A stretch of 64,000 bases of DNA from positions 1-64,000 of the forward strand of contig CAKOGP040000014.1 of the NCBI GenBank assembly GCA_933822405.4, given 5' to 3'. The translations under genes and the position numbers were made by a program. A model generated the notes under the pieces. It was given only the letters and a program-made list of their open reading frames with translations. It made no database searches and was not told where the DNA came from. Below are positions 47,436 to 62,891 of the stretch, one piece after another; the stretch's first letter is position 1; each line of letters starts with the position of its first letter. Origin of the DNA: Cylindrotheca closterium (Eukaryota > Bacillariophyta > Bacillariophyceae > Bacillariales > Bacillariaceae).

Positions 47436-49895
47436 ATGCAGTCCACTCTTGCACCTCATGTGGACAAGTTCCTGTATAATCCAGAGACTAGTAGTAGTGA
47501 TGGTACAAGCAGTGGTGATGAAACACCCTTTGATTGTGCCATGACAAAAGAGCAGCCAAGAACATCATCATCGTCAACTCCAATCAAGGCGAAGACGCAG
47601 GAAGACAGCAACGATATCAAGAAGATGGTGGATTCGGAATATTCGTATGAAGACGGTCCCTCATTTGACTGTGACGGTCCTCCTCCGAACATGGAAAACG
47701 GAATCAAGGTTGATTTCGGATTGGCTAGCACTGCATTCGGTGTTACTCCCATCAAATCGAACAAAACCGATCATGCTGATCGGGATGATGCCACTGTAAT
47801 GACGGAACCAGTGACACCATCTCCCTTCAAAACGCAATCCTCAAGCAAAAAGTCTATTTCCTCTTCCACGAGACGAAGAAGACAATCGCGCAACGAAGAC
47901 TCGCCTTTTGATGAAATGCCGTTTGATGAAAGTCACGAGGCGTATATCGATAGTCCTTATCGTTTGGATACCATTGTTGCAGCGGCAAACAGGAAAACTG
48001 TTTCGGTCCTAGATCGAATGGAAATGGAACCCGATTTTCCAGAATCGAGACTGCCACCGCGACCCGAGCGTCGACGACGAAAGGACGATTTACATGGTAG
48101 TAATCACAGCGCAAGTACCTGTGAAGACGATGCTGATGCTGACATAGATTACGAAGCCGATGTGGAACGTCCCCAAGGAAACAAGGACTTTGGTGAATAT
48201 CCCTACAGCGACGATGATGATACCATCGGGACTGCGGCATCGGAAAATGTGAATAGTGTGCCAACGGTACGACGACGAAATAATCGCAAGGCCAACATGG
48301 TATTGCCGACCAAGAAGAACAAGCCAAGCAAACCTGCAATTGAAGAATGGTGTCTCAACAATGTATTTGATAATATTGCTACGGACGCTGCCTTGGATGT
48401 TGCCGATTGGTTTGCAGATGGATATGTGGAAGGCAAGAATAATGTCAAGACCCTAGTCTATGATTGTCTTGTTCCAGTGAAGGATGGGCGAGGGTATGTT
48501 GAAGATGGCGAAGAGATGGTTCAGCTCCAGAGATCCACCGATTTGAAATCAGATCTCAGGGTGAAGCTAAATGAGGCGAAAAAGAGTGCCAAGACTATGG
48601 TCGATGACTACGATCTAAGACTGAAGCTAAATGAGGTAAAGGAAAGTGCCAAGACCATGGTTGATGACTGTTTAGTTCCTGGGAAAGAAAACGCGCATGG
48701 TGGACGAGGGTATGCCGGCAGTCATGGTGGCGAAGAGATGGTTCAGCTTCTAAGAACCACAGACGAGAAATCAGATCGGGCAAAGATGGGGGTACCATTG
48801 ACTGAGGAGCCGAAGAAGCCAAAGCGAGTTCCGAGAAAATTGGCACAGAGGGGGAGAAAGTCAAGGAGGAGCATGGATGATATCCAGAACGAACATGACG
48901 AATCATCGACAAACCACTCCGCATTGCGTGCGAAGAAGGCAGGGAGCTTTCGAAATATGGCGCCCAGAAAGGAGATAAAGGCAAGAAGGAGCAGAGAGCA
49001 TCTCGATGATGATGAATCCAACTACTCCTCAATGCGATCGAAGGGCGAGACCCACCATCCAGCAAAAAAGGCTCCAACTGAAAAATCCAATCTTGCAACG
49101 CCCACCATTCTTACACGAACCCGAAGCTTGTTGGAGGATACCCCAACAAAGGTCCCGCTTCCTTTTATTCAGCGTTCTGCTACCGTTGACGATGAAGCAA
49201 TGTTCGCTGGAAATTTGGAGATGAGCCACAGTTTTGATTCCACTTCAACGACAAAAACTGACAACTTTTCCGTACACCACGAGAACAATGAAGCGGAGGA
49301 CGACGATAACGAACATGTCAGCAGCTCGATGAAGGACATCACTGTTGCCAAGCAATCGCCCCCCGACAAGCAAGGTGAAGTTCCAGCGGTAGATGATGAT
49401 GATGACGATGGCAGTGCTTTGGACCAAGCAGCAGAAATGGCGGCTATAGTGAGAACCAAGCCTCTAGTGCCAGTCTTATCACAAGAGAAGCCACCCTCCG
49501 AAGATCTTGTTTCGGAGTCGACAAATGCTACGAAGCAAAATGATCACCCTCTTCGGCAATTCAAAATGCCATTAGGCACTCAAAAAATGACTATGGCTCA
49601 GGCGAAGGAGGTGCTCAAAGCAGCAAAATCCAGTGGTGGCATCCAATCTTATCCAATGTTCCTCGAGATGGAACCAGAATCAAAGTATGCCGATACACCG
49701 CCCAAATCCATTAAGGAATGGCCGCCATCAAATAACAACCACAAGACACAGGCATCCAATCCTCCAAGTGATAGTTCCGAGCCTTCATCACGCACGAAGA
49801 AGTCGAGACCTGTGGATCGATTTGGCTACGCGGCGGCCCTAAAGGACAAATCCAACAACCAAGAGACAGACAAAGCAGGAGAGACGTGGTGGTGA
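47436..49895 (+). CDS. large acidic low-complexity protein (819 aa)
   Basis: The product is 819 aa, single frame, mostly disordered-looking, rich in Asp, Ser and Lys/Arg. DETPFDC and SPFDEMPFDE motifs lie in the first fifth, and YSDDDDTIGT near residue 260. An ordered segment lies near 305-350 (CLNNVFDNIATDAALDVADW). After it, a ~80-residue module is duplicated: DCLVPVKDGRGYVEDGEEMV ... then DCLVPGKENAHGGRGYAG ... GGEEMVQL, with KLNEAKKSAKTMVDD and KLNEVKESAKTMVDD between. A second duplication (RRSMDDIQNEHDESS / RRSREHLDDDESN) follows. The stop overlaps a GTGAGT donor-like sequence at 49892, so a further exon cannot be ruled out. Confidence 0.75.
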   Translation: MQSTLAPHVDKFLYNPETSSSDGTSSGDETPFDCAMTKEQPRTSSSSTPIKAKTQEDSNDIKKMVDSEYSYEDGPSFDCDGPPPNMENGIKVDFGLASTAFGVTPIKSNKTDHADRDDATVMTEPVTPSPFKTQSSSKKSISSSTRRRRQSRNEDSPFDEMPFDESHEAYIDSPYRLDTIVAAANRKTVSVLDRMEMEPDFPESRLPPRPERRRRKDDLHGSNHSASTCEDDADADIDYEADVERPQGNKDFGEYPYSDDDDTIGTAASENVNSVPTVRRRNNRKANMVLPTKKNKPSKPAIEEWCLNNVFDNIATDAALDVADWFADGYVEGKNNVKTLVYDCLVPVKDGRGYVEDGEEMVQLQRSTDLKSDLRVKLNEAKKSAKTMVDDYDLRLKLNEVKESAKTMVDDCLVPGKENAHGGRGYAGSHGGEEMVQLLRTTDEKSDRAKMGVPLTEEPKKPKRVPRKLAQRGRKSRRSMDDIQNEHDESSTNHSALRAKKAGSFRNMAPRKEIKARRSREHLDDDESNYSSMRSKGETHHPAKKAPTEKSNLATPTILTRTRSLLEDTPTKVPLPFIQRSATVDDEAMFAGNLEMSHSFDSTSTTKTDNFSVHHENNEAEDDDNEHVSSSMKDITVAKQSPPDKQGEVPAVDDDDDDGSALDQAAEMAAIVRTKPLVPVLSQEKPPSEDLVSESTNATKQNDHPLRQFKMPLGTQKMTMAQAKEVLKAAKSSGGIQSYPMFLEMEPESKYADTPPKSIKEWPPSNNNHKTQASNPPSDSSEPSSRTKKSRPVDRFGYAAALKDKSNNQETDKAGETWW

Positions 49896-50139: not shown

Positions 50140-50460
50140 CGAGTGCGTGCAACATTCACATTGGAATGATTCCGAAAACAGTTTACCGGTACATATAGTC
50201 ACACCTTAGTGTCAGTCGCACGATAGGAGGAGGACGACTTGATGAAATCCGCAGAGCTTCAGAATATCTTGTGATTGAAAGATGATCCATCATCCATCAT
50301 CCTGGCGTTCTTGTAGAATCATGAAGCGCTGGTAAGCTTCCATGAATCATCGAAGAAATCTACCGTATGAAGATGGTCATCCAAATGAGCTATCGCGCGA
50401 AGCTTCTTGGATCTCACGCCGAGTCATGGTGAATGTTGTTGTGGTTGATGGGTCAGATTG
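50140..50460 (-). pseudogene. broken copy of family D
   Basis: The minus strand reads TMTRREIQEASRDSSFG, a stop, PSSYGRFLR, a stop, then MEAYQRFMILQERQ, matching TRDEIQEAAQRSSFGSSSPR / IIDFLDDEAEANQYFILQR of the intact gene at 52421-52882. DNA similarity continues through 50140-50270 (words around gaatgattcc and gtgtcagtcgcacgat). Stops and indels rule out a full product. Confidence 0.72.
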
Positions 50461-51106
50461 AAAAAATGTGGAATACTGCTTAGTGGCATCTGATGCGCAA
50501 TCTACCGGTGGCATTTTAGAAATTTACATCGCGTGCGAAATGTCGGAATAATGTCGACATCATCGATATATCGTACATGCGTGTTGTATTTTATCATTCG
50601 TTTTGCCCTCAACCGCCGTGGGCATTCTCACTGCTGTGATGTTGTTGGCTTTCTGGTTTTGACGCAAGCACGAACAAGATGTGATATTGTCGATGACGAG
50701 GATGATAAAACTGAATAGTAGTACAAAGTGCCAATTGCTCTCAATTCTGTTTGATGAACGGGACCATTATTGTCATGAGGATTGGGAAGTCTAGAGGCTA
50801 ATCGTGAGGTTCTGCAGCAATGAAGGAAGAAAGCAGGAGTGCGCTCTTCTTCCCTTTAGTTTTTAAGCTAGAACAATTCAATGTTCAAAGTGAAGGCTTT
50901 GGAATGTAAGATGGTATATTCTAAATGTGTATTATACTGATTGTATCAGCAATGAAACAGGTGTGAAAAATGTATGTACGGAATACAAACCAAGGGCGTA
51001 GAAAGAATTGGAGCTTCTTGCTCAAGCATGTATGAGTGAAATTGTAGCCTGCAAATCATCGCCTCGTAGGACGAGTTGACTACAAGAATGCAATGCAAAT
51101 AGCCCT
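50461..51106. other. flank shared with the 54.2-54.95 kb interval
   Basis: Words such as gaatactgcttag, ggctttctggttttgacgca and tgtatcagcaatgaaacag recur in the same order at 54255-54800. This is duplicated non-coding DNA. Confidence 0.75.
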
Positions 51107-51553
51107 TCAAAAAGCTAGGGGGAGCAAAAGACCGCTTGGAATATCTTCCACTTGAATCTCCAGCGTGCATTCTTGATCCGAGTAGACACTGTACTTTATC
51201 TCCCGATCTGATAGTGGTTGGGAAGTACTTGTTTGCTGCCTCGACCGTTGGGTTCTTGTAGCATTATCATTCGCATTGTTGGAATGATTCCAGAGCGAAT
51301 TGGTGCAATCATGCCTTGGTTGCAATAGTAAGAAGGGAGCAGTCGGATCGCTTGACGATGACCTCCTTGTGCTTGAAAGGTGATTTAAGTATCCATACGG
51401 ATTCTGGAGAATGAAGTTCTGGTTAGCTTCCATTTCGTCATCCAAGAAATCCATGATGCCTGTCGGAGATGATCCAAATGAAGCTTCGCGAATCTCGTGC
51501 CGAGTGGGGGATGTTGTTATTGAGGCCGACGGGTAAGGTGGTGTCGATATCAT
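51107..51553 (-). CDS. unknown protein, family D member 1
   Basis: The product is 148 aa. Three blocks are shared by the family: REIREASFGSSPTGIMDFLD followed by DEMEAN..FIL (N-terminal); PRHDCTNSLWNHSN (middle); and LEIQVEDIPSGLLLPLAF at the C-terminus. Linkers are Ser/Thr/Asn-rich and variable. No signal peptide or membrane segment; no known family recognised. The conserved terminal LLLPL(A/D/S)F suggests a functional tail motif. Confidence 0.72.
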   Translation of the reverse strand: MISTPPYPSASITTSPTRHEIREASFGSSPTGIMDFLDDEMEANQNFILQNPYGYLNHLSSTRRSSSSDPTAPFLLLQPRHDCTNSLWNHSNNANDNATRTQRSRQQTSTSQPLSDREIKYSVYSDQECTLEIQVEDIPSGLLLPLAF

Positions 51554-52420
51554 TTTGTTCTCACAAATGAATGATCGAGAAAAAATATGACCGGCATGCT
51601 ATATTGGTACGAAACCGGTGCTCTACACGTATCTTAGCGTCACCAGAATCTAGATAAGAAAGCACATGTCATCAAATTTCATACCCTGGTGGATACGCCT
51701 TTGCCCTTATTTTTGATTGGGTCCCACTCAACTTTGCTAGTAAAATTGAATCGCTCAGCATGAAAAGCCTGCAAAGCCATATCAATCTCAAAAACAAGTT
51801 TCGGATGACATTGGATTACAAGCGGCTTTTCAAACAACCAAATATCTGATCAGAAAATACCAGGGTAAAACGTAAGTGCAAGTTAATTTTAAAAATCCAG
51901 CTACCGCACCACGGTAGATTCGCCTTTTTTAAGGCTCGTGACAGCAACGCAAAAAATCTATTTGGCAGTTTCCCGCCAAAATGTTACCCTATCTTAGGAA
52001 AAAGCTATTCCGTAGGTAGTCGTTCGAAATCTGGTACCGCAAAAACCCACCTATCTAGAAGTAGGCCAGTGGTACGGAAACAAATGAAGTAGGGAGCAAT
52101 GCTAGTTTTGTAGTTCGTAGGTAAAACTCTGATCGACTAGAAGTCTGCTAGACTGTTTGGGAGGAGGAACAAGTCTGATGTTTGAGTCGATCGCGGATTC
52201 TTCGATATCAAGAGGTTTTGCTGGTTTGAAGATTTGTTATTGTATCTCTTTTATAGTCCTACCAGTGTGTATGATAATATCTATATCTCTATGTTTTATT
52301 TATTGATATTGAAGCATGTATAAGAAAGGTGCGGTACGGAGCAATGACGCCGAATAGCCGCATGAGAATCTATATTTCATCGCTGCCTACGATGGGGTGA
52401 ATGCAAGTTTCGATGGCCTT
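51554..52420. other. intergenic within the family-D array
   Basis: No gene seen. Unlike the other intervals, it shows no obvious match to the duplicated flanks. Confidence 0.45.
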
Positions 52421-52882
52421 TCAAAAGTCTAGTGGAAGCAAAAGATTGCTTGGAATCCCTCCCGCTGAAAACTCTAGGGTGGGCTGAGGAGGAGTGAGAT
52501 GTTGGGGAGTGGTTGCTTGTTGTCTTGGCGACACTTGGGTCCGGGAAGGGACACCATTCCCAGCATTCGAATGATTCCAAAGCGAATTTACACAATCGTG
52601 TCTCGGTGTCAATCGTACGATTGGAACAGGAAGATGGCTTGACGGCGACGTCAGTAGAGCTTCTGGTGTTCCTGTGGTGATTGAAAAATGATTGATGGAT
52701 CCATTCAGACGTTGTAGAATGAAGTACTGGTTAGCTTCCGCTTCATCGTCCAAGAAATCTATGATTCCTCTCGGAGATGATGATCCAAATGAGCTTCGTT
52801 GCGCAGCTTCTTGGATCTCATCCCGAGTCGTGACGAATGTTGCTGTAGTTGATGTGTCGGGAGATGTCGAGGAAGTTGCCAT
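52421..52882 (-). CDS. unknown protein, family D member 2
   Basis: The product is 153 aa. Blocks: RDEIQEAAQRSSFGSSSPRG then IIDFLDDEAEANQYFILQRL; PRHDCVNSLWNHSNAGNG; and a C-terminal GGIPSNLLLPLDF. It differs from members 1 and 3 in the last third (Pro/Gln/Thr-rich) and lacks the LEIQVE block. Confidence 0.72.
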   Translation of the reverse strand: MATSSTSPDTSTTATFVTTRDEIQEAAQRSSFGSSSPRGIIDFLDDEAEANQYFILQRLNGSINHFSITTGTPEALLTSPSSHLPVPIVRLTPRHDCVNSLWNHSNAGNGVPSRTQVSPRQQATTPQHLTPPQPTLEFSAGGIPSNLLLPLDF

Positions 52883-53789
52883 CTTGATTTCTCAGTGTGG
52901 AAGAGTCTTGCTGTTATTATGAGCCTCTAGGCAAACGATCAAATGCCACGGTCAAAAGATCTGGGGTTGTAAGGGTAGATTGTGAAGATTCTATCCGGTA
53001 GGAGAATTGGTGCGTTTGACGGCCAAAAAAGTGATGGTGCGTATCAAAAAAAATGTTGACTACTGCTTCTTTGTCTTGGGAACAAATCTGGCGCAACCTT
53101 CGGGACAATTAGAGAATTTATATCGCATACGAATGAATCCTGGGCACAGCTGATGTTGATATGTTATCATTAGTTGCTTGCAAGATAGTATTATATATGG
53201 TATTCTGATGCCACGCTTCTGATTACTTTCATTTTTTACGTAAACAAGAACAAGATAAATATCGATGATAATGATGATGATGACGATGATAAAACCGAAT
53301 GAAAGTTTCCTACTCCTATTTCTGTTCCATGAACGGGACCGACACATATGAATATTCATTATTCTGATCTGACAGTCACATGCGCAGGCATCAATCACTC
53401 TGCGCATGCATCATAAAATTGAAAACCGCAATAACTACACCATCACATTCATCCACCGGAACAGATACTAACCGCACACCTCGTTACGGTCGAAAAACGA
53501 GACCAACAATAAGCATTGGACAAGGACTAGAAACAATCTTCTTGCGCTTCCCCTCCTAAGCTTACGAGGGCCCGAGGCTTTCCCCTTTCGAAGGGATGGT
53601 GAAAGGTTTGCTATTGTGTCCATTTCTCACCAACAGGACTATGTACGATAAAACATATCTAGTATGTTTATATTGGTACTGGCAATGAAGCATTATGCAT
53701 AAGAAATGTGCGAAATACAAAGCTAAATCTATGAATCGTCGCTGGGTATGATGGGATCTTGAATGCAACGAATTAGCATCATGCTGGCC
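52883..53789. other. intergenic within the family-D array
   Basis: 53190-53330 contains a flank related to those at 50580-50770 and 54400-54590 (the ggtattctgatg..cacgcttctg and gaacgggacc words). No gene supported. Confidence 0.55.
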
Positions 53790-54226
53790 TCTCAAAAGTC
53801 TATAGGGGAAACAAATGATTGGTGGGTTGAGAAAGAGTGGTTGGAAAGTGATCGCTTGCGTTGGCTTGTTGGCTCTCTCCTTCTGGAGCGCGTGCAACAT
53901 TCTCGCATTGGAATCATAATATCCAAAACGCTGAGTCAGTCTTCGCACTCGCGCCTTATTGTCTCAATTACTGAATATGATTATCTTGTAATTGAAAGAT
54001 TATCCTCTATGGGTTCCATCATTCTTCAGACGTTATTGTAGAATTATATGAAGTGCTGCTTACCTTGCTTCCATTGCATCATTCGATTCCTCACAAGAGA
54101 TGATGATCCAAATGACCCTTCTTGGCTGGATCTTGATCCAAATGAGCCATCCCGCGAAGCTTCTTGGATCTCTTGCCGGATCGTGGCGAACCGAATGTTG
54201 TTGCTGTTGATGATGGAGGATGCCAT
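53790..54226 (-). pseudogene. broken copy of family D
   Basis: The N-terminal part is readable at 54044-54226 (TIRQEIQEASRDGSFGSRSS, then a duplicated EGSFGSSS and a shifted end). The C-terminal third is decayed in 53790-53960, where DNA words match the intact genes but frames are lost. The middle (fldde/filqr coding DNA) is recognisable only as nucleotides near 54030-54075. Confidence 0.7.
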
Positions 54227-54950
54227 TTTGGTTTTTCAGTACCGGGTAGAAAGAAAAACATGCGGAATACTGCTTAGCGGCATATATATCATTTGAAGTG
54301 CAATCAAAGCGATATCGTTTCCATAGTCCGCTCGCGCTAATTTCAAATTAGAATCTGGCAACCTGCGGACAAGGTGACGTCGATGTGAAGTTTTATTATC
54401 ACTCACCATCTGGTATTCTCACTGACTGTGATGTCACGCTTCTGGTGGCTTTCTGGTTTTGACGCAAGCAAGGGCACGATGTGATACCGGTATTACGGTA
54501 TTATCGATGATGAGGATGAGAAAACAGAATACTAGTACCAGGTACCAATTACTCCCAGCTGTGTTCGATGAATGGGATCATTGCCATGAGGATTGGGGAG
54601 TCTTGAGGCTAACGAAGATGTAGCAATGAAGGAAGGAGTGCGCTCTTCTTCTCTCTTTTGTAAATCATAACTTCTGAGTTGCAAGCTAGAAGAATTTTAC
54701 TCTGCAGGAACTCTGCTGTTCACAGTCGAGGCTTTGGAATGTAAAATGATAACATATATGTTCTAAATGTGTATTATGCTAGTTGTATCAGCAATGAAAC
54801 AGGTGTAAAAAGTGGAGGTACGGATACGGAGCAGGGCCGCAAAACACGTTTGAAGCTTGCCCGAGTACCATGGGTGAAATAATCTACAAATCATCCTCGA
54901 TGCGTAGGATGCGTTGAATGAAATGAAATGGAATGCAATGCAGATAGCTT
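54227..54950. other. flank shared with the 50.46-51.1 kb interval
   Basis: Second copy of the duplicated non-coding flank; it includes one TACCGGTA (54485-54492). Confidence 0.7.
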
Positions 54951-55424
54951 TCAAAAAGATAGTGGAAGGAAAAGACCACTGGGAATCTCCTCAACCTGAA
55001 TCTCCAGTGTGGGTTCTTGGGCCGAGTAGTAAGAGTCCGAGTTGGCTGATACTAGTGGTCGGGAAGTACTTGTCTGTTGTCTTGATCCTTGAGCTCTTGT
55101 AGCGTTGGCACTAGCATTCGCATTGCCATTCGCATTTTTGGGATGATTCCAAAGCGAATTCGCGAAATCATGCCTTGGTTTCAATAGTAGGGTGGGAGGA
55201 GGCGAAGAGGACCTCAGCTGCTCTTCTGATGTGCTTGAAATCTGATTGAAGGGTCCAATCGGACGACGACGGAGAATAAAGGGCTGGTCGTCGATTTCCA
55301 TTTCATCGTCCAAGAAATCCATGATACCTCTCGGCGATGATCCAAATGACTCTTCATACGAAGATTCGTGAATCTCATACCGAGTCGTGGAGGTTGTGGA
55401 CATGGAAGATGGTGTAAGTGTCAT
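54951..55424 (-). CDS. unknown protein, family D member 3
   Basis: The product is 157 aa. Blocks: YEIHESSYEESFGSSPRG then IMDFLDDEME..PFILRRR; KPRHDFANSLWNHPKNANGN; an NANASANAT expansion; and LEIQVEEIPSGLFLPLSF. Closest to member 1 in the last third, agreeing with duplication of the pseudogene-flank-gene block. Confidence 0.72.
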   Translation of the reverse strand: MTLTPSSMSTTSTTRYEIHESSYEESFGSSPRGIMDFLDDEMEIDDQPFILRRRPIGPFNQISSTSEEQLRSSSPPPTLLLKPRHDFANSLWNHPKNANGNANASANATRAQGSRQQTSTSRPLVSANSDSYYSAQEPTLEIQVEEIPSGLFLPLSF

Positions 55425-56298
55425 GATTGTGGTTTCTCAACAAGCTTGATCTTAGAATGTTGCGATGAGTGAGAATAACGGATTCAGGGTTGCAAGGGTA
55501 TAAATTGTGTTTGAAGATTCTTCTCAGTGGAGAAGGCTGTTTGGCCGCAAAAAAGTGAAAGCGAATGGCGTGTCATGCAATGTCGGAATGGAAAGTGAGA
55601 AGTTTATCGGTTTTGCGAATAATGTCTTGATTTGGATTGGCTTGGAAAACATCAAATTTTGGTAATTAAAGGACGGCAGATGCATACCTTGGTAATTAAA
55701 GGCGCTTAAAAAGTGTTGTTAAATCAATCGTCGTAAGGACACAAAGAGTGTGCCATGATTCTGCGGCGATTAGAGACTCAAACACTCTTGGATGTTTCCG
55801 CTTCTAAGGGATTCTTTTTGGTTGCGAAGCCAGCAGGGACAGATGCCAAGATTGATTTTCAGGCCCTTCCGGAAAAACTCGTATGTAATGTAACGCTACC
55901 GTTTTCGGTGTTCTGGGCTACAGTATGGTGAACAGACATGAAAAAGGCCCAAGGAGTTTACCAAGAGCGACCGTGCGTTCAGGTTCGGGTTGGATTGTTT
56001 GTGTTGGCCGCGTACCAGCAGGTAGGTAAAAGAATCTACAATATCATATGAGTATTATGCCAGTATTTGTACGTACCACCGGTATTATCCGATGATCCTG
56101 TAATTTCAAATTGATCCCAGAACGAGGATCCACTCGACCACATCCAATGCTAACCTAGTTCTTTTTTGCTTTGTCCCAAGCGACACAACGTCATTTAATG
56201 TCACAAAGCTTTCACGAAGTCGACGGACTTGATAAAAATCATTGGCGATGAATGACAGGACAGAAGCTTGACATTGAATGACACGAACCGACGAAAGA
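55425..56298. other. intergenic; possible tiny ORF
   Basis: A 59-codon frame at 55754-55933 (MILRRLETQTLLDVSASKGF...) is open but has no family match. Nothing else seen. Confidence 0.4.
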
Positions 56299-59886: not shown

Positions 59887-61515
59887 TTAAGCCATTTCCT
59901 CAGCCTTGGCGGCCTTGGCTTCTTCCTCCTCGACTTCCAAGTCACGCATGCCCTTGTTCTCCATCTCAATGGCGTTTTGGTACACTTGTTGCTCAGCAGG
60001 AGAGGCATCAGCAGACAAGGCTTCCAAGTCAGCAATGTTAGACTGCATGCGTTCGCGCTTGGTGGCAAAGGATTCCTTTCCAGACAAGTTCTGGATGGCT
60101 TCTTCCCAGGTGGAGGGGTTTCCAACAAGGACGTTGGTTCCCATGGAAAAGTCACGTCCAGGGTGAATGGAGCGATCGGGGTGCTTTCCAGCGGCGCGTT
60201 CTTCGGCAGTTCCGACATAAACCTCATCCAATTGGAATCCAGCAACCTTCTTGTGGATGGTTCCAAAGAACCAAGAGGCGGCACAGATACCGGTAGCTTC
60301 AATGGCCAACACAACGTTCAACATGATGAAAACGAAAGGGTTGGAAAGGAAGGCAATGGGGAAGGCGGAAGCGACCAATTGCCAAGAGATGGAGGCAAGG
60401 ATGGTGGTGATGATGGCTCCAAGGAATCCCAAGTTGAAGAATTCTTGAAGACCGTCAGAAACACCAAAAATGTTCTCGTCCTCTCCGATCTTGATGTTCA
60501 AAGTGGTGACACGGGCGGCGACGAAGAAGATAAGAGTAACGGTGACTTGACGTCCAACCATGAATCCTGGAAGGTTGCGTCCCTCTCCCTTGAACAAAAG
60601 CTCGCAGGTTCGCTTGGCAACGGGATGGTCTCCGCGTTCCTCCTTCTTCAGCTTGGAAACGGCAAAGAAAGCAATTTGCATGGCCTCAAGAAGACCGACA
60701 AGGGATAGCAACACAAAGAAGATGATGACTGCGGCCCAGTTGGGGATGACGTCCCACATGGTGGTTTGTCCCTTGAAAAGAGCTTCAAGGGTGACAGCCA
60801 AAGAAAAGCAAAGGACGACCATGGAAAAGAGAACACGTCCCCAGTGGAAGAAGGCCTTCACAGCATCGCGTGGTGGTTCGTTGGTCACAATGGGCTTTCC
60901 GGCGGCCCAGTAGAAGCAGTCACGGATCAAGTAGCACACGTGCATGAATCCAGTCATCTCGATCAACAAGGTGCAGTACAAGGTAAAGGTCATGAAGTGC
61001 GTGTTGATGTAGTCAAGCATGCAGTGAGAAGCGTTCACTTGGGCAGTCAATTGTCCAATGTTCACGTTTGTCAACACCATGGCAATACCAGATCCCAAAA
61101 AGATGTCAGACACCCATTGTGGAAGACCAAGAACGGAGGCTCCCTCCAGAGGAGATCCGCAAAGAGAAATGGTAAAGTTGATGAAGATAACCATGAATTG
61201 ACGTCCCATGAGGTAACGGTCAAGGTTATCTCCCTTGTGTCCGAGAGAACAGATTTGGTAGGTGATCTTGTGGGACTCTCTGTAGAGCTCACGGTCAATT
61301 GGGGGAAGACCAACCATGGAGCATTGTCCACCTTCGACCATACTCATCCAAAGAATACCGAGCCACATGACAACAAGGGCAACGACAGGGTGAGCATCGT
61401 TGGCAACCTTGGTGTTCTCAGTGAACATCAATGCGGTGACGATGACCACAGAGAAGATGACAAGGCATGTCGAGTAGAATTGCTTGAAAATATCGAGGGG
61501 GCTGTTGGACAACAT
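59887..61515 (-). CDS. SIT: silicon (silicic acid) transporter, SIT
   Basis: The product is 542 aa from the ATG at 61515; the frame is open to 61665, but this start gives the usual SIT length and N-terminus (MLSNSPLDIFKQFYST). About ten hydrophobic segments form two related halves. Half 1: EGGQ at 61-64, GRQ at 104-106, CMLD at 165-168. Half 2: EAMQ at 277-280, GRQ at 321-323. Paired EGxQ/GRQ motifs are the SIT signature and CMLD is typical of pennates. The C-terminal ~65 residues form an acidic coiled coil. SITs are Na+-coupled silicic acid transporters of the plasma membrane that feed frustule formation. The second motif has Ala where EGMQ is usual. No intron. Confidence 0.96.
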   Translation of the reverse strand: MLSNSPLDIFKQFYSTCLVIFSVVIVTALMFTENTKVANDAHPVVALVVMWLGILWMSMVEGGQCSMVGLPPIDRELYRESHKITYQICSLGHKGDNLDRYLMGRQFMVIFINFTISLCGSPLEGASVLGLPQWVSDIFLGSGIAMVLTNVNIGQLTAQVNASHCMLDYINTHFMTFTLYCTLLIEMTGFMHVCYLIRDCFYWAAGKPIVTNEPPRDAVKAFFHWGRVLFSMVVLCFSLAVTLEALFKGQTTMWDVIPNWAAVIIFFVLLSLVGLLEAMQIAFFAVSKLKKEERGDHPVAKRTCELLFKGEGRNLPGFMVGRQVTVTLIFFVAARVTTLNIKIGEDENIFGVSDGLQEFFNLGFLGAIITTILASISWQLVASAFPIAFLSNPFVFIMLNVVLAIEATGICAASWFFGTIHKKVAGFQLDEVYVGTAEERAAGKHPDRSIHPGRDFSMGTNVLVGNPSTWEEAIQNLSGKESFATKRERMQSNIADLEALSADASPAEQQVYQNAIEMENKGMRDLEVEEEEAKAAKAEEMA

Positions 61516-62891
61516 ATTGCAAAGATGTTGTTTTGGTTCGTTCAAAATTGTGAGCCTTGGAACGAGATTTTCAGTTTGGAAAGAAAAGATCTTGGGTTCG
61601 AAATGGTGACAGTGAGTTGTACATGTTGCGCGGGCCTGGTCTGTATCGGCGAATTTTGGTTTCATAAGATCGATGTCAACACGTAGGTGCTTCGTGGAAA
61701 TGTACTGCGTTGGCTGTTTGTTGTGTTAGATCATTGGAAACTTTTGTCTGTTCGTTCTTTTGTCTGAATAACGGCAAAATACCGTGCAGTAGGGTATGCT
61801 GTCTCGAGGCCAACAGGATTGTACACCAATTGTACGGGAAGCGGTCTGCGTTTATGGGATCCAAGATCGCTGAAGTCCGCGAAATGGTTGTGAAAACGCC
61901 ACGGCCAACATCAAATGGTATCTTTTTGCATGACCGCCAACTGACGGAGGGTGGAAAGTCTCCACCCAATGCTTCCATGACAGTGCTTGTGATCGTTCGA
62001 CTGGTCCTCGTTGGTCATCTATTCTCAGCTGCACCATGACGGCGTGAGGGGCGTCCAAATCCTGTTTTTCATTTTACCATCACGTCAGTTCTGTTATCAA
62101 GCCACCATGAATCCATCTGAAGACAGTGAGATAATGTACTGCGATGTTGATGTGATGGCCGATGTAGACTATGAAGCTTTTTTTCTGGAAGTTCGAAGTT
62201 AAGCTCTTATTTGTTGGCATTTAATGAAAGCGCTGGCAGTACCGAATATCGAACCTGTGGTGTTTCACTGCTTATGCTGCCTCCGCCGTCTCCCGTTTTC
62301 CATCGATCTTGAATTCCACAACTTCATGGCCTTGGCTCGTGGAATGGCGGACTAACATTCAAGTCTCTTGGTTGTCACTTGCTATGAAAATACAGCGGAA
62401 GACCTAAGGCTTTCCATCATATTTCGCTACAGCATCATTGTTCCCTATTCCAGTTGACGTCAGTCTTTGCCGTTGTGGAGCTCAAGGATCTGACATGATA
62501 GAATTACACAAGTATTCAAAGCGACCAACCAGAGAAATGGAGCAGAAGGTAAACTTGTCAAATGCATGCGTCATGAGATGATAGAAATGATTCAGAGTGA
62601 GCCCTAGGTAGAAGTTATCAACCCATACTAAAAATCACACAAGTGCTTCCAGCCCGTCATTTCCGCACACGGACCATTTCATGCTGTTTGTTGCTTTACG
62701 ACTCCATCTGTGAGGCAACACCTATGCTGAATTCATCCATTATCCTTACACAATAGATCGCTGTCTTTTCCAAGCACACTGTTGGTCGAGGATCATCAGC
62801 ACCAACGGCGCCCGCAAATTCAAAATGGGCATTGAGTGAGATCTTCAACTAAATGCAACCCCACTTGACCGCTCATTCCAACCTTCGATTC
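61516..62891. other. upstream region of the SIT gene
   Basis: The SIT promoter must lie in its right-hand neighbourhood (61516-62000), but no element was identified. No other gene supported. Confidence 0.5.

What the first reader, a model, noticed from the sequence alone, without database searches (positions are those of the whole stretch)
50140..55424. Array of an undescribed small-protein family with a duplicated pseudogene-flank-gene block
Three intact genes (51107, 52421, 54951) and two broken copies (50140-50460, 53790-54226) lie on one strand. Intact copies keep three short blocks: a SFGSSPxGIMDFLDDE-type start, PRHDxxNSLWNH in the middle and a terminal LLLPLxF, while linkers vary freely. 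The two units [broken copy, ~600-bp flank, intact gene] at 50.1-51.6 and 53.8-55.4 kb share non-coding words in the same order, so a block of at least 1.4 kb seems to have been copied as a whole. This shows birth and death of a lineage-specific family.
Basis: seen in the sequence. Interest (0 to 1): 0.75.

Follow-up and report, generated by a model that had tools for sequence, protein, structure and literature searches.

The report
Tandem array of orphan diatom genes
Five neighbouring copies of a small, so far unnamed gene (three intact, two decayed) arose by tandem copying in what is probably a diatom genome, and selection seems to hold mainly three short motifs of an otherwise fast-changing, probably unstructured protein.

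Summary
Three intact minus-strand ORFs (148, 153, 157 aa) and two decayed copies lie at 50.1-55.4 kb. The unit [broken copy, flank, intact gene] was copied as a whole: 50262-51576 aligns with 53979-55451 over 1523 columns, 65% identity, E 1e-144; the non-coding flank alone scores 455 against at most 18 in 30 shuffles. I add that all five copies are units of one tandem array with a dimer duplication on top: X1 and X3 group together, then with G2, against G1 and G3. Both broken copies share an 8-base insertion and lack a 5' stretch shared by G2 and G3, so X was probably dead before the dimer was copied. dN/dS of intact pairs is 0.40-0.51, intervals below 1. Against simple purifying selection, the flank and the dead pair have diverged no more than the intact pair. 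In its 47.6-Mb genome the family was found only here; three environmental proteins belong to it. No significant Pfam, PDB or Rfam match. Function is inferred only. A good but ordinary case of birth-and-death evolution.

The parts
50140..50460 (-). X1: decayed copy; start codon not kept, frames broken, C-terminal third not found
   Evidence: tblastn in three frames with stops, five-way alignment
50461..51106 (.). non-coding flank (5' side of X1, 3' side of G1), copied with the block
   Evidence: 80% identity over 601 aligned columns with 54255-54950; score 455 versus shuffle maximum 18; no match outside the array in the genome
51107..51553 (-). G1: intact gene, 148 aa
51577..52228 (.). 5' side of G1: no similarity found to the 5' side of any other copy
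   Evidence: 51560-52230 matches only itself in the genome; none of four local scores is above its shuffles
52229..52420 (.). 3' flank of G2, homologous to the 3' flank of X3 (53603-53768) and of G3
   Evidence: local scores 88 and 70, 0 of 200 randomised sequences reach either
52421..52882 (-). G2: intact gene, 153 aa, groups with the broken copies
   Evidence: split supports 0.999 and 0.95 in an unrooted tree
52964..53034 (-). short 5' stretch shared by G2 and G3 (55487-55558), not found beside X1, X3 or G1
   Evidence: local score 57, maximum 48 in 200 randomised sequences; scores at X1, X3 and G1 no better than shuffles; modest evidence
53048..53340 (.). distal 5' flank of G2, homologous to 50461-50765 and, from 53120, to 54340-54577
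   Evidence: local scores 126 and 115, 0 of 200 randomised sequences reach either
53790..54226 (-). X3: decayed copy; ATG kept, first block broken, several stops
54227..54950 (.). non-coding flank (5' side of X3, 3' side of G3)
54951..55424 (-). G3: intact gene, 157 aa

Best explanation
A five-unit tandem array of an orphan gene family. An ancestral gene was copied in tandem with its flanks (shown by homologous 3' and 5' flanks). One copy, X, lost a stretch next to its start (perhaps promoter or 5' UTR; inferred) and suffered a frameshift. The dimer [X, flank, Y] was then copied as one block, by unequal exchange or replication slippage (inferred), giving X1-G1 and X3-G3. G2 is the intact sister of X. 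The intact products are short, Ser/Thr/Pro-rich, probably disordered proteins in which three motifs (consensus: SFGSSPRGIMDFLDDE, PRHDxxNSLWNH, and a C-terminal LEIxxxxIPSxLLLPLxF) are the slowest-changing parts. Most likely they act as intracellular linear-motif adaptors or regulators that bind partners through these motifs (inferred; no partner known).
For: Whole-block homology including non-coding DNA. Tree splits X1+X3 (0.95) and X1+X3+G2 (0.999) against G1+G3. Shared 8-base insertion in X1 and X3, and absence in both of the 5' stretch common to G2 and G3. dN/dS overall 0.40, 0.41, 0.51, all 95% bootstrap intervals below 1; pooled blocks 0.29, 0.17, 0.43 against linkers 0.48, 0.70, 0.59; 7 of the 9 single-block intervals lie below 1. 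A neutral ORF survived in 0 of 20000 simulations at the flank's indel rate and in 1475 of 20000 with substitutions alone. The first two blocks recur in all three environmental relatives and the third in two of three; P0005 is too short to hold it. AlphaFold2 gave no fold: mean pLDDT 49.6, pTM 0.12, four sequences. No significant Pfam or PDB match.
Against: Flank divergence (K 0.23) is about that of coding DNA of G1-G3 (K 0.26), and the dead pair X1-X3 (K 0.27 over 287 columns, 0.23 over the best 199) has diverged about as much as the intact pair by the same aligner; by MAFFT the dead pair is less alike, 70% versus 76%. Third codon positions differ more than flank sites (49 of 141 versus 120 of 601, P 3e-4), so the flank is constrained, dS is inflated, or the two alignment methods differ; against the flank, overall dN (0.24) is about neutral. 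Block 1 of G2-G3 has dN/dS 0.78 (0.22-3.08) and block 3 of G1-G2 0.52 (0.15-2.24). The simulation's frameshift rate is probably too high: the same aligner puts 7 non-triplet gaps into intact G1-G3. In none of the three genes is the true frame the best of six by codon usage, and only G3's exceeds the non-coding 95% level. No expression data. The molecular role is a guess from composition.
Confidence: 0.75

Rival explanations
1. The whole array is drifting: the intact ORFs are survivors without present function and will follow X1 and X3.
For: Coding, flank and dead pair diverge about equally; no clear codon-usage signal; G1's 5' side is unrelated to that of the other copies; two of five copies are dead.
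Against: dN/dS below 1 in all three pairs, lower in the pooled blocks than in linkers in each pair; low neutral ORF survival; the motifs recur in environmental relatives.
Confidence: 0.15
2. The block is part of a mobile element that carries the gene.
For: Non-coding DNA was copied together with the gene.
Against: Flank and family were found only at this locus in the genome, though that DNA search is insensitive: it missed the known relatives of the G2 flank inside the array. No pair among the ten inverted repeats listed bounds the block. None of the six proteins scanned is a transposase; smaller ORFs in the flanks were not scanned, and target-site duplications were not sought.
Confidence: 0.03
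3. The broken copies are functional genes with introns or regulatory RNAs rather than pseudogenes.
For: The flank beside them is more conserved than third codon positions.
Against: X1 lacks the start codon and C-terminal part; X3 has several stops and a disrupted first block; no Rfam match in the window at gathering scores. Splicing was not modelled.
Confidence: 0.05

Closest known systems
Species-specific tandem gene arrays of diatoms (Seminavis robusta, PMC7335047; start of abstract and passages seen)
   Same: Tandem-cluster expansion; the passages report 4594 tandem duplicates, tandem-mediated expansions largely species-specific, and tandem duplicates under less constraint than dispersed ones.
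   Different: The tandem families named in the passages seen have known domains (LRR, heat-shock factors, cyclases, globins and others); this family has none and only five copies were found.
Environmental proteins P0003, P0005, P0006
   Same: Share the motifs; 62, 52 and 52% identity to G3.
   Different: On short unnamed contigs (1116, 503, 2515 bases); genome context unknown; P0005 is short and P0006 has extra residues at both ends.

Membership tests
Tandem array under birth-and-death evolution | adjacent same-strand copies with homologous flanks | tested here: met
   (exception: 5' side of G1)
Tandem array under birth-and-death evolution | intact and inactivated copies side by side | tested here: met
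Tandem array under birth-and-death evolution | copies diverge rather than being homogenised | tested here: met
   69.5, 71.5 and 76.0% DNA identity among intact copies; runs test on 70 informative sites shows no conversion tract, P 0.86
Tandem array under birth-and-death evolution | purifying selection on intact copies | tested here: inconclusive
   dN/dS 0.40-0.51, but coding, flank and dead-pair divergence are about equal
Any known Pfam or PDB family | significant profile match | tested here: not met
   Pfam: three families, each matching 1 of 6 members, best E 0.083; PDB: best E 0.32
Lineage-specific diatom family | present only in one diatom lineage | not testable with these tools
   no named diatom proteomes; 3 relatives outside the window in the large protein set; none in the phage, viral and prokaryote searches

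The most novel reading that the evidence does not exclude
A motif-only protein family in which three short motifs are held while linkers change about as fast as, or faster than, the neighbouring non-coding DNA (G1-G3 linker dN 0.41 against flank K 0.23), for example as a recognition or arms-race component whose copies are repeatedly born, change promoters and die.
Probability: 0.1. Interest if true: 0.55.

Novelty: new member of a known kind. Interest (0 to 1): 0.3.

Why it matters
It is a compact example of how a family without known relatives grows and decays in what is probably a diatom: a dead gene seems to have been copied along as a passenger, and the shared lesions order the events. It also gives three motifs by which the family can be sought in algal transcriptomes.

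Tried and rejected
Mobile element: disfavoured (limits given under the rival; one search shows how insensitive the genome DNA search is). Gene conversion as the cause of high third-position divergence: runs test negative. Described structured RNA: no Rfam match at gathering scores. Distant relatives: a second profile round with six members added nothing. Codon usage: in none of the three genes is the true frame the best of six; the training set was only three long neighbour ORFs and the background was joined non-coding pieces, so low power. Gap lengths: triplet gaps in a DNA-only alignment are 5 of 12 in G1-G3, 5 of 9 in G1-G2, 11 of 28 in G2-G3, 4 of 17 in X1-X3 and 8 of 32 in the flank, a weak hint. 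Structure: no fold, so no fold search was run. Literature: the string NSLWNH is in 0 papers of the held library; three topical searches gave nothing on this family in their listings, and only passages of PMC7335047, some from its abstract, were seen.

Short linear-motif labels (eIF4E-, PP2A- and PDZ-type) were considered from memory only and dropped or left untested.

Full report
What is there. On the minus strand of 50.1-55.4 kb lie, left to right, X1 (decayed), G1 (intact), G2 (intact), X3 (decayed), G3 (intact). The region lies between an 819-aa ORF without a significant Pfam match and a PHD-finger protein; a silicon transporter (PF03842, E 5e-255) follows at 59887-61665. The last is characteristic of diatoms (general knowledge); the genome (47.6 Mb, 572 contigs) is unnamed.

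Family. G2 and G3 share 58 and 68% identity with G1, and the three have three conserved blocks. One single-sequence search (two window proteins and P0003) and two profile searches (six proteins each) of 5.8 billion proteins together returned the window's own three and three environmental proteins, P0003, P0005 and P0006. In the own genome, searches with G1 DNA and with the proteins G2 and P0003 found the family only in this array; the one other hit, on contig C57, has E 1.7. None of these three found X3 and only one found X1, so more decayed copies elsewhere could be missed. G3 found nothing in phage records; profile A2 gave 126 pattern stretches in viral contigs and 41 in prokaryote contigs, none confirmed by tblastn. 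No significant Pfam or PDB match.

Block copying. Self-comparison gives one long alignment, 50262-51576 with 53979-55451 (65% identity, E 1e-144). The non-coding flank alone is 80% identical over 601 columns with 32 gaps under a gap-tolerant alignment; simulations put this at a true K of about 0.2-0.25. Stricter blastn gives 69% over a stretch that includes most of G1 and G3. Local alignments show that the other units are homologous too: the 5' side of G2 with those of X1 and X3, the 3' side of G2 with those of X3 and G3, and the 3' side of X1 with that of G3 (in each, 0 of 200 randomised sequences reach the score). Of the other pairs, the 3' sides of X1-G1 and G1-G2 are borderline (1 of 200 each), as are the 5' sides of G3-X1 (3 of 200) and G3-X3 (1 of 200). 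The 5' side of G1 resembles none.

Order of events. An unrooted DNA tree groups X1 with X3 (0.95) and both with G2 (0.999), against G1 and G3. In the five-way alignment X1 and X3 share an 8-base insertion in the middle motif. Both lack roughly 150-165 bases next to the start of G2 that hold a stretch shared by G2 and G3. This suggests that X was inactive before the dimer was copied. It rests on alignments of decayed DNA, and the G2-G3 stretch is only moderately above chance (57 against a maximum of 48 in 200, one of 20 pairs compared). G1, though intact, also lacks the stretch. In a protein tree the environmental relatives fall on the G2 side with weak support (0.79-0.85).

Selection. dN/dS (Nei-Gojobori) is 0.40 (0.24-0.62), 0.41 (0.24-0.64) and 0.51 (0.33-0.81) for G1-G2, G1-G3 and G2-G3; pooled blocks 0.29, 0.17, 0.43; linkers 0.48, 0.70, 0.59. 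Two of nine single-block intervals include 1 (block 3 of G1-G2, block 1 of G2-G3). Neutral ORF survival in one lineage was 0 of 20000 with the flank's frameshift rate, which is probably an overestimate, and 1475 of 20000 with substitutions alone. Against this, coding DNA is not more conserved than the flank (K 0.257 versus 0.232) nor clearly more than the dead pair (X1-X3 K 0.27), and third positions differ more than flank sites (49 of 141 versus 120 of 601, P 3e-4). The codon alignment and the gap-tolerant DNA alignment were made differently, which may explain part of it. Compared with flank K, the dN of the G1-G3 blocks (0.10) is low and that of their linkers (0.41) is high. No conversion tract was seen, and codon usage gives no clear support.

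Mechanism. The proteins are rich in Ser, Thr and Pro, with pI 4.9-5.4, and AlphaFold2 gives no fold (mean pLDDT 49.6; with four sequences the poor model may also be due to the shallow alignment). I judge a disordered motif-carrying adaptor or regulator most likely, at about 0.35; the array history itself I hold at about 0.9. The 0.75 for the best explanation covers the array history with maintenance of the motifs, not the molecular role.

Verdict. The finding is real and its interpretation sound, with refinements. Tandem birth-and-death of lineage-restricted families is well known (general knowledge), and largely species-specific tandem expansions are reported for a diatom (PMC7335047, passages seen). 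The family itself appears undescribed within what could be searched.

Noticed in passing
51577-52228: The 5' side of intact gene G1 resembles the 5' side of none of the other copies: promoter region replaced or lost while the ORF stayed open.
   Followed up: partly
59887-61665: Silicon transporter gene (PF03842, E 5e-255), which suggests a diatom.
   Followed up: no
48435-48777: Two internal direct-repeat pairs (58 and 139 columns, 83 and 68% identity) within the 819-aa ORF next to the array.
   Followed up: no
P0006 (environmental protein; no window coordinates): Relative with about 95 extra N-terminal residues before an internal Met and 19 residues beyond the usual terminal Phe; possibly an ORF-calling effect.
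   Followed up: no
50461-51106 and 54255-54950: Non-coding flank differs at fewer sites than third codon positions of G1-G3 (120 of 601 versus 49 of 141): hidden constraint, inflated dS or an alignment effect.
   Followed up: partly
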